64,000 bases of DNA from Anaerotruncus rubiinfantis. GTDB taxonomy: Bacteria > Bacillota > Clostridia > Oscillospirales > Ruminococcaceae. This document shows, piece after piece, positions 54,425 through 55,935 of this stretch; position 1 is the first letter of the stretch; each line of letters starts with the position of its first letter. The notes beneath the pieces are model-generated. The model saw only the letters and a program-made list of their open reading frames with translations. It was not told the origin of the DNA and did no database searches. The stretch spans positions 1,068,614-1,132,613 of the forward strand of contig NZ_FKLA01000009.1 of assembly GCF_900078395.1 (NCBI RefSeq). Direction: 5' to 3'. The position numbers and the translations under genes are program-made.

Positions 54425-54459
54425 AGGCCCCCTCCCCGTCCGGGAAGGGGGCCTTTTTG
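54425..54459 (+). terminator. Terminator of the SGNH/DUF4358 operon
   Basis: AGGCCCCCTCCCC...GGGGGCCTTTTT. Confidence 0.85.
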
Positions 54460-54569: not shown

Positions 54570-54597
54570 TTGCATTCGTCTGGGGTTGTGCTATAAT
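54570..54597 (+). promoter_or_regulatory. Promoter of the corA leader transcript
   Basis: TTGCAT-N16-TATAAT. The predicted start near 54604 leaves a leader of about 180 bases before corA. Confidence 0.7.
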
Positions 54598-54665
54598 AGA
54601 TAAGGCGTAAAACGGGCGGCGGCCTGTAAGAAATCTGCCGGAATTGAATTTTTGGAGGTGTAGAT

Positions 54666-54752
54666 GTGAACCCTGACCCTGGAAGTAGTTGTCCAGTTCG
54701 ACAACGCGTGATCAGAAAAGAGAATATCGGCAGGGGCACATCCAACCGCTAA
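54666..54752 (+). CDS. Candidate Mg2+-sensing leader peptide (MgtL-like), 28 residues
   Basis: GGAGG (54654-54658) lies 7 bases before a GTG that opens 28 codons: fMet-Asn-Pro-Asp-Pro-Gly-Ser-Ser-Cys-Pro, then an Arg/Lys-rich second half and TAA at 54750. E. coli MgtL starts Met-Glu-Pro-Asp-Pro and also has a basic tail; its nascent chain destabilises ribosomes when Mg2+ is low, switching on mgtA. This ORF precedes a CorA gene and runs through the GCAGGGG arm of a regulatory hairpin. An overlapping ATG (54664) is followed at once by TGA and could act as a start-stop. Translation is not proven. Confidence 0.55.
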   Translation: MNPDPGSSCPVRQRVIRKENIGRGTSNR

Positions 54753-54784
54753 GACCGTACCCCTGCGGAAAAGGGGTATTACGA
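54729..54784 (+). promoter_or_regulatory. Mutually exclusive hairpins controlling the corA ribosome site
   Basis: CCCCTGC (54760-54766) can pair upstream with GCAGGGG (54730-54736; 7 bp, extended by 2 bp past one mismatch). Alternatively TACCCC (54758-54763) pairs downstream with GGGGTA (54773-54778), hiding the AAGGGG Shine-Dalgarno of corA. The first pairing frees the ribosome site. An upstream hairpin GTTGTC-CAGTTC-GACAAC (54688-54705) lies within the leader ORF. Confidence 0.6.
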
Positions 54785-55719
54785 TGCTTAACTTCTACAA
54801 AACCGTTGACAATCGTATTATCAGGATCGACGCCCCCGAAACCGGCTGCTGGATCTGTGCCATCAGCCCTTCGGAAGCGGAGATCGCCTACCTCACCGGC
54901 GACCTCGAGATCGAGCCGGATTTCGTGCGTGCCGCGCTCGACGAAGAGGAAAGCTCCCGCATCGAGAGTGAGGAAGGCCAGACGCTGGTGATTGTTGACT
55001 ACCCGGTGGCTGATCAGCAGGATGACGAAAACAAAACCATCCTCTACACCACCATGCCAATGGGAATCATTATGACGCGGGACTATGTCCTGACCGTCTG
55101 CCTGCGGGAAAACCTGCTCATCAGCGAAATGGCGGAAGGCCGTGTCAAAGGCCTGCAAACCTCGCTGAAAACGCGTTTCCTGCTCTTAACCCTGCTGCGG
55201 ATCGCCGCGCGCTTTCTGCAGTACCTCAAGCAGATCGACAAAATCTCCTCAATGACCGAAACACGCCTGCATCAGTCGATGCGCAACAAGGAGCTCATCC
55301 AGCTTCTGGGCTTGGAAAAATCGCTTGTGTTTTTCTCCACATCGCTCAAGTCCGATGAGATCACGCTCGAGAAAATCCTGCGCGGCCGGATTATCAAGCT
55401 GTATGAGGAGGACGAGGACCTGCTGGAAGATGTGCTCATCGAGGTCAAGCAGGCGATCGAAATGTGTAATATCTATTCGAATATCCTTTCCGGGACGATG
55501 GACGCCTTCGCGTCGGTCATCTCGAATAACCTCAATATCGTCATGAAGGTGCTCACCGCCATCACCATCGTCATGGCCATCCCCAATATGGTGTTCAGCT
55601 TCTTCGGCATGAACGTGGTGGATCTGCCGTTGCCGTATTCGTGGTTTCCAATCGCGCTGTCGCTCGGGCTTTGCGGGATTGCGGCGCTTATCCTCTGGAA
55701 AAAGAATATGTTCCGATAA
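54784..55719 (+). CDS. corA: CorA family Mg2+ transporter
   Basis: 311 residues. N-terminal cytosolic domain (1-230) with the long stalk helix, then two C-terminal TM helices. The signature GMN is at 275-277 (FFGMNVV) at the end of TM1. Pentameric channel for Mg2+ (also Co2+/Ni2+). The start ATG follows AAGGGG, which is sequestered in a hairpin. The long leader with its own small ORF implies translational control by Mg2+. Terminator at 55718. Confidence 0.95.
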   Translation: MLNFYKTVDNRIIRIDAPETGCWICAISPSEAEIAYLTGDLEIEPDFVRAALDEEESSRIESEEGQTLVIVDYPVADQQDDENKTILYTTMPMGIIMTRDYVLTVCLRENLLISEMAEGRVKGLQTSLKTRFLLLTLLRIAARFLQYLKQIDKISSMTETRLHQSMRNKELIQLLGLEKSLVFFSTSLKSDEITLEKILRGRIIKLYEEDEDLLEDVLIEVKQAIEMCNIYSNILSGTMDAFASVISNNLNIVMKVLTAITIVMAIPNMVFSFFGMNVVDLPLPYSWFPIALSLGLCGIAALILWKKNMFR

Positions 55720-55780: not shown

Positions 55781-55935
55781 GCGCCCTCCGCGCGCTCGGG
55801 GAACGCGCCCTTCGCGCGGCTGGGGAACGACGCGCCCTTCGCGCGGCTGGGGAACGCGCCCTCCGCGCGCCCGGGCCCCATTTCTTGCTCGTGCAAGAAA
55901 TGGGGGAAAGAACACGCGCGGGGTATCCCCGCGAC
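55781..55935. repeat. GC-rich tandem repeats followed by perfect palindromes
   Basis: Four units of GCGCCCTTCGCGCGGCTGGG type start at 55781, 55805, 55832 and 55856 (periods 24, 27, 24). Then comes the 13-bp inverted repeat CCCCATTTCTTGC-TCGT-complement (55876-55905) and CGCGGGG-TAT-CCCCGCG (from about 55916). No gene is supported in 55756-56054; open frames across it are products of the repeats. Confidence 0.8.

What the first reader, a model, noticed from the sequence alone, without database searches (positions are those of the whole stretch)
54570..54784. Possible Mg2+-sensing leader peptide and translational switch upstream of corA
Seen: a promoter, a GGAGG site, then a 28-codon ORF (GTG 54666, TAA 54752) starting fMet-Asn-Pro-Asp-Pro and ending basic. 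The ORF spans GCAGGGG (54730-54736), which can pair with CCCCTGC (54760-54766). The same C tract can instead pair with the corA Shine-Dalgarno (54773-54778). Known: E. coli MgtL (MEPDP start) makes ribosomes fall off at low Mg2+, which turns on mgtA. Inference: at high Mg2+ ribosomes finish the leader and disturb the first hairpin, so the Shine-Dalgarno is hidden. At low Mg2+ ribosomes drop at N-P-D-P, the first hairpin forms and corA is translated. I know of no described MgtL-type control of a clostridial corA. The overlapping ATG-TGA start-stop adds a further twist.
Basis: partly seen in the sequence, partly recalled or inferred. Interest (0 to 1): 0.86.

Follow-up and report, generated by a model that had tools for sequence, protein, structure and literature searches.

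The report
Mg2+-linked leader peptide before corA
A tiny peptide gene with an acidic-proline start, kept together with a matching RNA switch in front of the magnesium channel gene corA in many Firmicutes, looks like a Gram-positive counterpart of the MgtL magnesium sensor of enteric bacteria, though its response to magnesium has not been tested.

Summary
The 28-codon ORF (GTG 54666 to TAA 54752) and both hairpins are there. In the window plus 80 corA relatives, 66 of 81 have an SD-preceded M-x-x-[D/E]-P mini-ORF before corA (shuffles: mean 0.6); among 134 unique upstream regions 103 have an acidic/proline-start leader (shuffles: 8.2). All 14 distinct whole-genome motif hits precede corA. A third helix pairs the leader's own SD, start and PDP codons with hairpin 1's 5' arm (p<=0.05 in 46 of 62), making a four-segment switch: 1:2 + 3:4 (corA SD closed) or 2:3. 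Six of 59 loci scanned have an M-box Mg2+ riboswitch before corA, five with a leader between. Most likely, Mg2+-sensitive ribosome drop-off opens corA, as for MgtL, with another RNA output. Not shown: Mg2+ response, drop-off, sign. Equilibrium folding favours 3:4 even with the leader start masked; alignment-based covariation is weak. The ATG-TGA start-stop is not conserved. New variant of a known kind.

The parts
54570..54597 (+). promoter-like TTGCAT-16-TATAAT with TG before the -10 box
   Evidence: read by eye; not listed by the scan (TTGCAT fails its 4-of-6 rule)
54654..54658 (+). Shine-Dalgarno GGAGG of the leader ORF
   Evidence: G-rich SD columns conserved in the alignment
54666..54752 (+). 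leader ORF, 28 codons, MNPDPGSSCPVRQRVIRKENIGRGTSNR, acidic-proline start
   Evidence: leader present in relatives far above shuffles
54657..54678 (+). segment 1: leader SD/start/PDP codons (GGU 54657-54659, GAUGUG 54663-54668, CCCUG 54671-54675)
   Evidence: duplex with segment 2 region -27.2 kcal/mol against shuffle mean -16.5, p 0.005 of 200 shuffles; pairing probability 1.00 in the free fold
54730..54745 (+). segment 2: GCAGGGGCACAUCCAA, pairs with segment 1 (CAGGG, CACAUC) or segment 3 (GCAGGGG)
54757..54766 (+). segment 3: GUACCCCUGC, pairs with segment 2 (CCCCUGC) or segment 4 (GUACCCCU)
54771..54776 (+). corA Shine-Dalgarno AAGGGG
54772..54779 (+). segment 4: AGGGGUAU, overlaps the corA SD
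   Evidence: 3:4 hairpin -11.9 kcal/mol alone, probability 0.96 in the free fold; none of 100 shuffles as strong
54784..55719 (+). corA, 311 aa, CorA channel family; GMN motif read by eye
   Evidence: Pfam PF01544; PDB CorA chains 4cy4 E 2.4e-19 and 4ev6 E 3e-19

Best explanation
The region is a leader-peptide attenuator for the Mg2+ channel gene corA. The leader ORF begins with an acidic-proline motif of the kind that destabilises the elongating ribosome when Mg2+ is low. The RNA has four segments. Free RNA folds as 1:2 (closing the leader's own SD, start and PDP codons) plus 3:4 (closing the corA SD): OFF. At low Mg2+ ribosomes initiate but drop off at about codon 5; they keep segment 1 covered and leave segment 2 free, so 2:3 forms before segment 4 is made and the corA SD stays open: ON. 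At adequate Mg2+ ribosomes run through segment 2, 2:3 cannot form, and afterwards 3:4 and 1:2 close. In relatives where the leader stop is on or past the corA SD, the completing ribosome would itself cover the corA start. Shown by sequence: the leader and its amino-acid motif, the three helices as predictions above chance, their sharing of arms, and the link to corA. Inferred: drop-off, Mg2+ as the signal, the sign, and the kinetic choice of 2:3.
For: Leader: 66 of 81 against mean 0.6 in shuffles; 103 of 134, and for M.{0,3}[DE]P 92 of 134, against 8.2 and 1.2. Third bases vary and D/E swap (codon 4 GAC 77, GAT 7, GAG 3, GAA 1; codon 5 CCT 56, CCG 19, CCC 11, CCA 2, of 98 leaders that were themselves found with a [DE]P-type rule). 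Distant members have other residues of the same type (MDGDP, MDSDP, MDDP, MEGDP). The motif pattern hits 5 of 9 and 10 of 394 genomes, once each, reversed control 0; all 14 distinct hits stand before a corA relative. Helices: 1:2 duplex p<=0.05 in 46 of 62, mean z -2.66; best stems p<=0.05 in 35 of 62 (2:3) and 30 of 62 (3:4) (printed as fractions). Shared arms: 1:2/2:3 62 of 83 against 18.9, 2:3/3:4 38 of 83 against 6.9 in shuffles. Synonymous covariation: the downstream region holds the complement of CCNG with the leader's own wobble base in 30 of 46, against 9.0 for other bases; RNAalifold on 12 chosen relatives finds the PDP-codon helix. Window free fold is 1:2 + 3:4; with segment 1 covered and 2:3 made, the corA SD is 0.73 unpaired against 0.17 in the free fold. 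Geometry fits in 74 of 83. M-box, terminator-like hairpin, leader, corA in that order in L108, L115, L116, L120, L143. Literature, passages only: drop-off at EPDP of MgtL at low Mg2+ turns mgtA on (PMC11282234); E. coli corA 5' region responds to Mg2+, corL translation is inversely related to corA, and stem A hides the uORF SD (PMC11552253).
Against: No Mg2+ experiment. At equilibrium, masking the leader start still gives 3:4 (0.94) and 2:3 at 0; with segment 1 covered, 3:4 is better than 2:3 by 4.6 kcal/mol. If 2:3 forms without a ribosome on segment 1, the corA SD is still only 0.35 unpaired, because segment 1 can pair with segment 4. RNAalifold on the MAFFT alignment of 55 predicts no pair, and on 12 it finds neither 2:3 nor 3:4. 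Pairs with both bases changed stay paired only modestly above expectation: 13 of 23, 10 of 16, 9 of 12 against 0.41 (p 0.09, 0.07, 0.02). 45 of 83 loci fail the 2:3/3:4 criterion and 21 of 83 the 1:2/2:3 criterion. 31 of 134 upstream regions lack such a leader, among them the close relative L002, and some of the 103 hits (for example L103, L104, L145) look like chance. The window motif NPDP has one acidic residue where MgtL EPDP has two, so drop-off may be weaker. L063 and L074 have MSEDGG and no proline.
Confidence: 0.7

Rival explanations
1. Same leader and same RNA switch, but the signal is another condition that slows or aborts translation at D-P or P codons (EF-P or ABC-F activity, Pro/Asp tRNA charging, translation inhibitors); Mg2+ is at most one input.
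For: EF-P and EttA act on MgtL (PMC6460261, passages; PMC11282234, passages). Codons 6-10 of the leaders are rarer than corA codons, so general elongation speed may matter.
Against: The target is a CorA-family channel, and in five relatives the leader stands behind an M-box Mg2+ riboswitch. The acidic residue is kept in distant members that lack the N-P-D-P form (MDDP, MDGDP). No run of one amino acid is seen in the leaders.
Confidence: 0.15
2. Opposite sign or simple coupling: the leader is translated to open the 3:4 hairpin and hand ribosomes to corA, with little Mg2+ sensing.
For: The leader stop is within 25 nt of the corA start or past it in 37 of 83; the free RNA closes the corA SD.
Against: Plain coupling gives no use to helix 2:3 or to the acidic-proline codons; in seven loci the leader ends 26 or 56 nt past the corA start, poor for re-initiation.
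Confidence: 0.1
3. The RNA alone senses Mg2+ (riboswitch-like), and the ORF is incidental.
For: Stable alternative folds with a long 1:2 stem.
Against: Leader ORFs far above shuffles across divergent sequences, with third-base variation, D/E swaps and ATG/GTG/TTG exchange; no Rfam match in the window at gathering score and none over the leader up to E 1.
Confidence: 0.05

Closest known systems
mgtL leader of mgtA, Salmonella/E. coli (EPDP motif, intrinsic ribosome destabilisation)
   Same: short ORF before a Mg2+ transporter; acidic-proline residues at the first codons; alternative stems (A and B against C), one of which hides the leader SD
   Different: known case is a P-type ATPase gene in Enterobacteria with Rho-dependent termination; here a CorA channel gene in Firmicutes, with predicted output by corA SD closure, possibly a terminator (L004, L023) or leader overlap; I saw no peptide similarity beyond the motif (by eye)
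corL leader of corA, Salmonella/E. coli
   Same: uORF before corA in a two-state 5' region; translation inversely related to corA
   Different: corL is described as having fewer proline or acidic residues and acts through Rho (PMC11552253, passages); here the acidic-proline start is the conserved core
M-box (ykoK) Mg2+ riboswitch, RF00380
   Same: stands before the same corA family; found in tandem with the leader in five relatives
   Different: not found in the window; an aptamer, not a translated peptide switch
trp/his-type amino-acid attenuators (recalled)
   Same: four segments with 1:2, 2:3, 3:4 pairing and a ribosome deciding
   Different: no run of codons for one amino acid; ribosome loss proposed instead of stalling; translational output

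Membership tests
MgtL/CorL-type Mg2+-responsive leader peptide | short SD-preceded ORF upstream of a Mg2+ transporter gene | tested here: met
MgtL/CorL-type Mg2+-responsive leader peptide | acidic and proline residues in the first codons, kept across relatives | tested here: met
   66 of 81 and 103 of 134 against shuffles
MgtL/CorL-type Mg2+-responsive leader peptide | two mutually exclusive RNA states, one hiding the leader SD | tested here: met
   as predictions; results against: no pair by RNAalifold on 55 rows, weak covariation
MgtL/CorL-type Mg2+-responsive leader peptide | Mg2+-dependent ribosome drop-off and response of the downstream gene | not testable with these tools
   needs a reporter, toeprint or peptidyl-tRNA assay
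MgtL/CorL-type Mg2+-responsive leader peptide | Rho-dependent termination as output | not tested
   rut sites not examined; segment 4 overlaps the corA SD in the window, which points to a translational output
M-box riboswitch RF00380 | M-box aptamer in the leader | tested here: not met
   no Rfam match in the window; present before corA in L097, L108, L115, L116, L120, L143
amino-acid biosynthesis attenuator | run of codons for the regulated amino acid | tested here: not met
   by eye in the 69 leader sequences
RAPP-type arrest peptides | R-A/G-P(P) motif | tested here: not met
   no R[AG]P in 83 leaders

The most novel reading that the evidence does not exclude
Ribosome instability on an N-terminal acidic-proline peptide is used across Firmicutes as an intracellular Mg2+ gauge for corA, evolved apart from or long before enterobacterial mgtL. 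It is wired to a four-segment translational attenuator that also locks its own leader, and in some lineages it is stacked behind an M-box, giving one gene two different Mg2+ sensors in series, one RNA-based and one ribosome-based.
Probability: 0.6. Interest if true: 0.88.

Novelty: new variant of a known kind. Interest (0 to 1): 0.8.

Why it matters
In the passages I read, MgtL/CorL-type leaders, in which translation of a leader peptide reports Mg2+, are described for Enterobacteria. A leader with the same peptide property before corA in many Firmicutes would make it a wider strategy, give many natural variants (NPDP, SPDP, TADP, SPEP, MDDP, MDGDP) for testing which nascent peptides destabilise ribosomes, and show one sensor joined to up to three kinds of output. 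The tandem with the M-box allows a direct comparison of an RNA sensor and a ribosome sensor on one gene.

Tried and rejected
ATG-TGA start-stop: in the window and L001 only, of 83 leaders; rejected as a conserved part. Known riboswitch in the window: none at gathering score; of two matches below it, both on the minus strand over the upstream terminator region, neither touches the leader. H-type pseudoknot of the start-region helix with hairpin 1: first read, dropped when one search showed that the start-region helix extends through the PDP codons into the same arm, making the two helices alternatives. A covariance model was not built, because the MAFFT alignment misplaces segment 2. The slid-partner control (60 sequence pairs) gives more both-side-changed pairs than the true register, so only its paired fractions are used (80-82% true against 42-56% slid), and these lean towards the reference structure. 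One-side pair-keeping is inflated by transition bias and is not relied on. In some searches the stem chosen as 2:3 is sometimes the 3:4 hairpin itself (for example L004, L023), which lowers the switch count. Rho sites, a tree of leader types and an alternative pairing of CUGCCG upstream with segment 2 were not followed.

Rows dropped and selection: searches use 62 of 69 leaders (seven with the leader start under 80 nt from corA left out); one search aligns 55 of 69 (also without leaders starting more than 122 nt away, and without L030); one search uses 12 of those 55, chosen by me; one search uses 134 unique of 151 regions, after L120 and L123 (start not mapped) were left out; and the last count use 83 leaders, including 21 chosen by hand from the list; the codon table uses 98, 29 of them by hand. 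Because the first 69 leaders were found with an M..[DE]P rule (plus MSPLPE and MSEDGG), the residue counts at codons 4 and 5 are partly circular; the unbiased figures are those. L071 has only 46 nt upstream. M-box scan: 60 slots, L101 twice, so 59 distinct loci of the 152 held.

Literature: eight searches. None of the rows listed is about a Firmicutes corA leader peptide by title or abstract start; one search listed 30 of 44 papers and one search listed 10 of 149. Only open-licence PubMed Central papers are held.

Full report
What is there. Between the terminator-like hairpin after the upstream gene (54441-54459) and corA (54784-55719, Pfam CorA; best PDB matches are CorA chains 4cy4 and 4ev6) lies a leader with GGAGG (54654-54658), an ORF GTG 54666 to TAA 54752 (MNPDPGSSCPVRQRVIRKENIGRGTSNR), GCAGGGG (54730-54736), CCCCTGC (54760-54766) and the corA SD AAGGGG (54771-54776).

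Is the leader real? Eighty corA relatives, the best of 382, were fetched from named genomes. With the window, 66 of 81 upstream regions have an SD-preceded ORF M-x-x-[D/E]-P; 20 rounds of dinucleotide shuffles gave 0 to 2, mean 0.6. A slightly looser rule that also takes MSPLPE and MSEDGG gives 69 of 81. L064 reads MNPDPRS but failed the SD filter. Record titles are mainly Oscillospiraceae, Ruminococcaceae, Anaerotruncus and unclassified Clostridia; the five MSPEP or MSPLP leaders (L033, L035, L037, L039, L041) come from records titled Amedibacillus dolichus, Eubacterium sp., Traorella sp., Erysipelotrichaceae bacterium and Clostridiales bacterium VE202-01. Over all unique regions, 103 of 134 carry an SD-preceded ORF with at least two D/E/P, one of them acidic, in residues 2-6, against 8.2 (max 15) in 30 rounds of shuffles; M.{0,3}[DE]P occurs in 92 against 1.2 (max 3). 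A few of the 103 (L103, L104, L145) look like chance hits. In 98 leaders the start codon is ATG 47, GTG 41, TTG 10; codon 4 is GAC 77, GAT 7, GAG 3, GAA 1; codon 5 is CCT 56, CCG 19, CCC 11, CCA 2 (partly circular as to the residues, since most leaders were found by that motif, but not as to third bases). Residues 2 and 3 vary (NP, SP, KP, TA, NA, GT, SS, DG, DS). This points to selection on a peptide property. The later part of the leader is not conserved as peptide, by eye.

Is it tied to corA? The pattern GAGGTGN{2,7}NTGARYCCNGAYCC gave one hit in each of 5 of 9 genomes of my loci and 10 of 394 genomes of the order of G001, none with the reversed pattern; one genome is in both. All 14 distinct hits (L081-L094) are followed by a corA relative. 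The pattern is strict and misses most leader types; how many of the 394 genomes have this corA was not searched.

RNA switch; the best stem of each class is at p<=0.05 against 100 shuffles in 40% (start region with downstream), 56% (2:3) and 48% (3:4) of 62 loci; the duplex of segment 1 (SD to codon 5) with the downstream region reaches p<=0.05 in 46 of 62 and p<=0.01 in 24, mean z -2.66; the window scores -27.2 against a shuffle mean of -16.5 kcal/mol, p 0.005. Outer 1:2 stems: GAUGUG/CACAUC (window), ACGGCGUG/CACGCCGU (L004), GGAUAUGGUG/CGCCAUAUCC (L038), GGAUAUAGUG/CGCUAUGUCC (L053), GGCAAGGCU/AGCCUUGCC (L025). 2:3 and 3:4 change together: UCGGGG/CCCCGA with GAUACCCC/GGGGUAUC (L006), CUGUGCAGGAA/UUUCUGCAUAG with CUCUUUCU/AGAAAGAG (L027), GCACGGGAGAA/UUCUCCUGUGC with CGAUUCUCCU/AGGAGAAUCG (L066). 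The inner part of 1:2 uses the PDP codons: where codon 3 is CCN before GA, the downstream region contains the complement of CCNG with the leader's own wobble base in 30 of 46 loci, against a mean of 9.0 for the other three bases (T: 22 of 31; C: 6 of 11; G: 1 of 3; A: 1 of 1). RNAalifold on 12 chosen relatives picks this inner helix only, five pairs, two of them with compensatory changes (five cells), and neither 2:3 nor 3:4. Shared arms of independently chosen stems make 1:2 and 2:3 exclusive in 62 of 83 (null 18.9, max 26) and 2:3 and 3:4 exclusive in 38 of 83 (null 6.9, max 11). Against: RNAalifold on all 55 finds nothing, and nearest-neighbour pairs with both bases changed stay paired in 13 of 23, 10 of 16 and 9 of 12 (expected 0.41; p 0.09, 0.07, 0.02). 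The evidence for the helices is thus mainly their strength against shuffles and their shared arms, less a formal covariation test.

How it most likely works. The free window RNA folds as 1:2 + 3:4 (probabilities 1.00 and 0.96) with the corA SD closed. The 2:3 hairpin alone (-14.5) is stronger than 3:4 alone (-11.9), but forcing it costs 7 kcal/mol overall, and masking the leader start at equilibrium still leaves 3:4 at 0.94. With the leader start covered, forced 3:4 is better than forced 2:3 by 4.6 kcal/mol (-43.5 against -38.9). The corA SD (54771-54776) is 0.17 unpaired in the free fold, 0.35 when 2:3 is forced without a ribosome (segment 1 then pairs with segment 4) and 0.73 when 2:3 is forced with a ribosome on segment 1. 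So the ON state needs both a ribosome kept on segment 1 and 2:3 formed during transcription before segment 4: just what repeated initiation and drop-off near codon 5 would give, but an inference. In 81 of 83 loci a ribosome with codon 5 in the P site leaves the 2:3 arm free; in 76 a ribosome at the stop covers it; both in 74 (no null was computed, and the leader lengths favour this). In MgtL, drop-off at EPDP at low Mg2+ is reported to turn mgtA on (PMC11282234, passages); high Mg2+ suppresses such destabilisation in E. coli (stated in PMC9718836, passages); EF-P acts on mgtL prolines (PMC6460261, passages); and in E. coli corA the uORF corL is inversely related to corA, with a stem that hides the uORF SD (PMC11552253, passages). 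A similar three-stem logic is visible here. In seven loci (L047, L049, L050, L055, L057, L059, L068) the leader starts 58-70 nt before corA and ends 26 or 56 nt inside it; there a completing ribosome would cover the corA start. L004 and L023 have a T-run after 3:4, as an intrinsic terminator would. One peptide start with several outputs argues that the peptide is the constant element.

Link to Mg2+. Besides the target gene, an M-box Mg2+ riboswitch lies upstream of corA in 6 of 59 distinct loci scanned: L097 (no leader seen) and L108, L115, L116, L120, L143. In the latter five the order is M-box, terminator-like hairpin, SD and leader (MDDPEAD, MDGSKGKD twice, MDDPDAD, MADDVGR), corA. L115 and L116 have only a weak motif and did not pass the test, and their leaders appear to run into corA; L120 was left out, and its corA is split by stops. 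L108 and L120 also show 1:2, 2:3 and 3:4 partners by eye. None of this proves that the leader responds to Mg2+.

Novelty. The eight literature searches listed no leader peptide of a Firmicutes corA in the rows shown (two lists were capped; see Tried and rejected); papers outside the open-licence library were not searched. I file it as a new variant of a known kind: by anatomy it works like MgtL, but membership by Mg2+-dependent drop-off was not testable.

Noticed in passing
leader codons 6-10 in 69 leaders, e.g. window 54681-54695: Codons right after D-P are rarer than usual for the same cell's corA (mean log2 relative use -0.65 to -1.02 at codons 6-10, -0.41 to -0.01 at codons 2-5 and 11-14, +0.21 inside corA; AGT, CGA, TTA, GGA, GGG dominate): possibly a slow stretch that holds the ribosome at the destabilising motif.
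   Followed up: partly
L047, L049, L050, L055, L057, L059, L068 upstream of corA: Short variant: the leader ORF runs over the corA SD and start and ends 26 or 56 nt inside corA.
   Followed up: partly
L108 1141-1485, L116, L143, L115, L120: M-box riboswitch, terminator-like hairpin, acidic leader, then corA: two candidate Mg2+ sensors in series.
   Followed up: partly
L004 and L023, just before corA: Hairpin 3:4 followed by TTTTTTT, resembling an intrinsic terminator, so the output may be transcriptional in Anaerotruncus colihominis.
   Followed up: no
L002 upstream of corA: A close corA relative (79% identity), apparently also after a DUF4358-like gene end (by eye), has no such leader in 350 nt.
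   Followed up: no
window 54635-54640 and 54728-54733: CUGCCG upstream of the leader SD can pair with CGGCAG at segment 2; predicted when the leader start is masked; not checked in relatives.
   Followed up: no
window 55785-55880: GC-rich direct repeats (GGGGAACGCGCCCTTCGCGCGGCT-like units) shortly after the corA terminator-like hairpin, read by eye.
   Followed up: no
L120/L123 (genome G477): corA match split over two frames, with 2 TGA and 1 TAA inside one part, while M-box and leader stand upstream.
   Followed up: no
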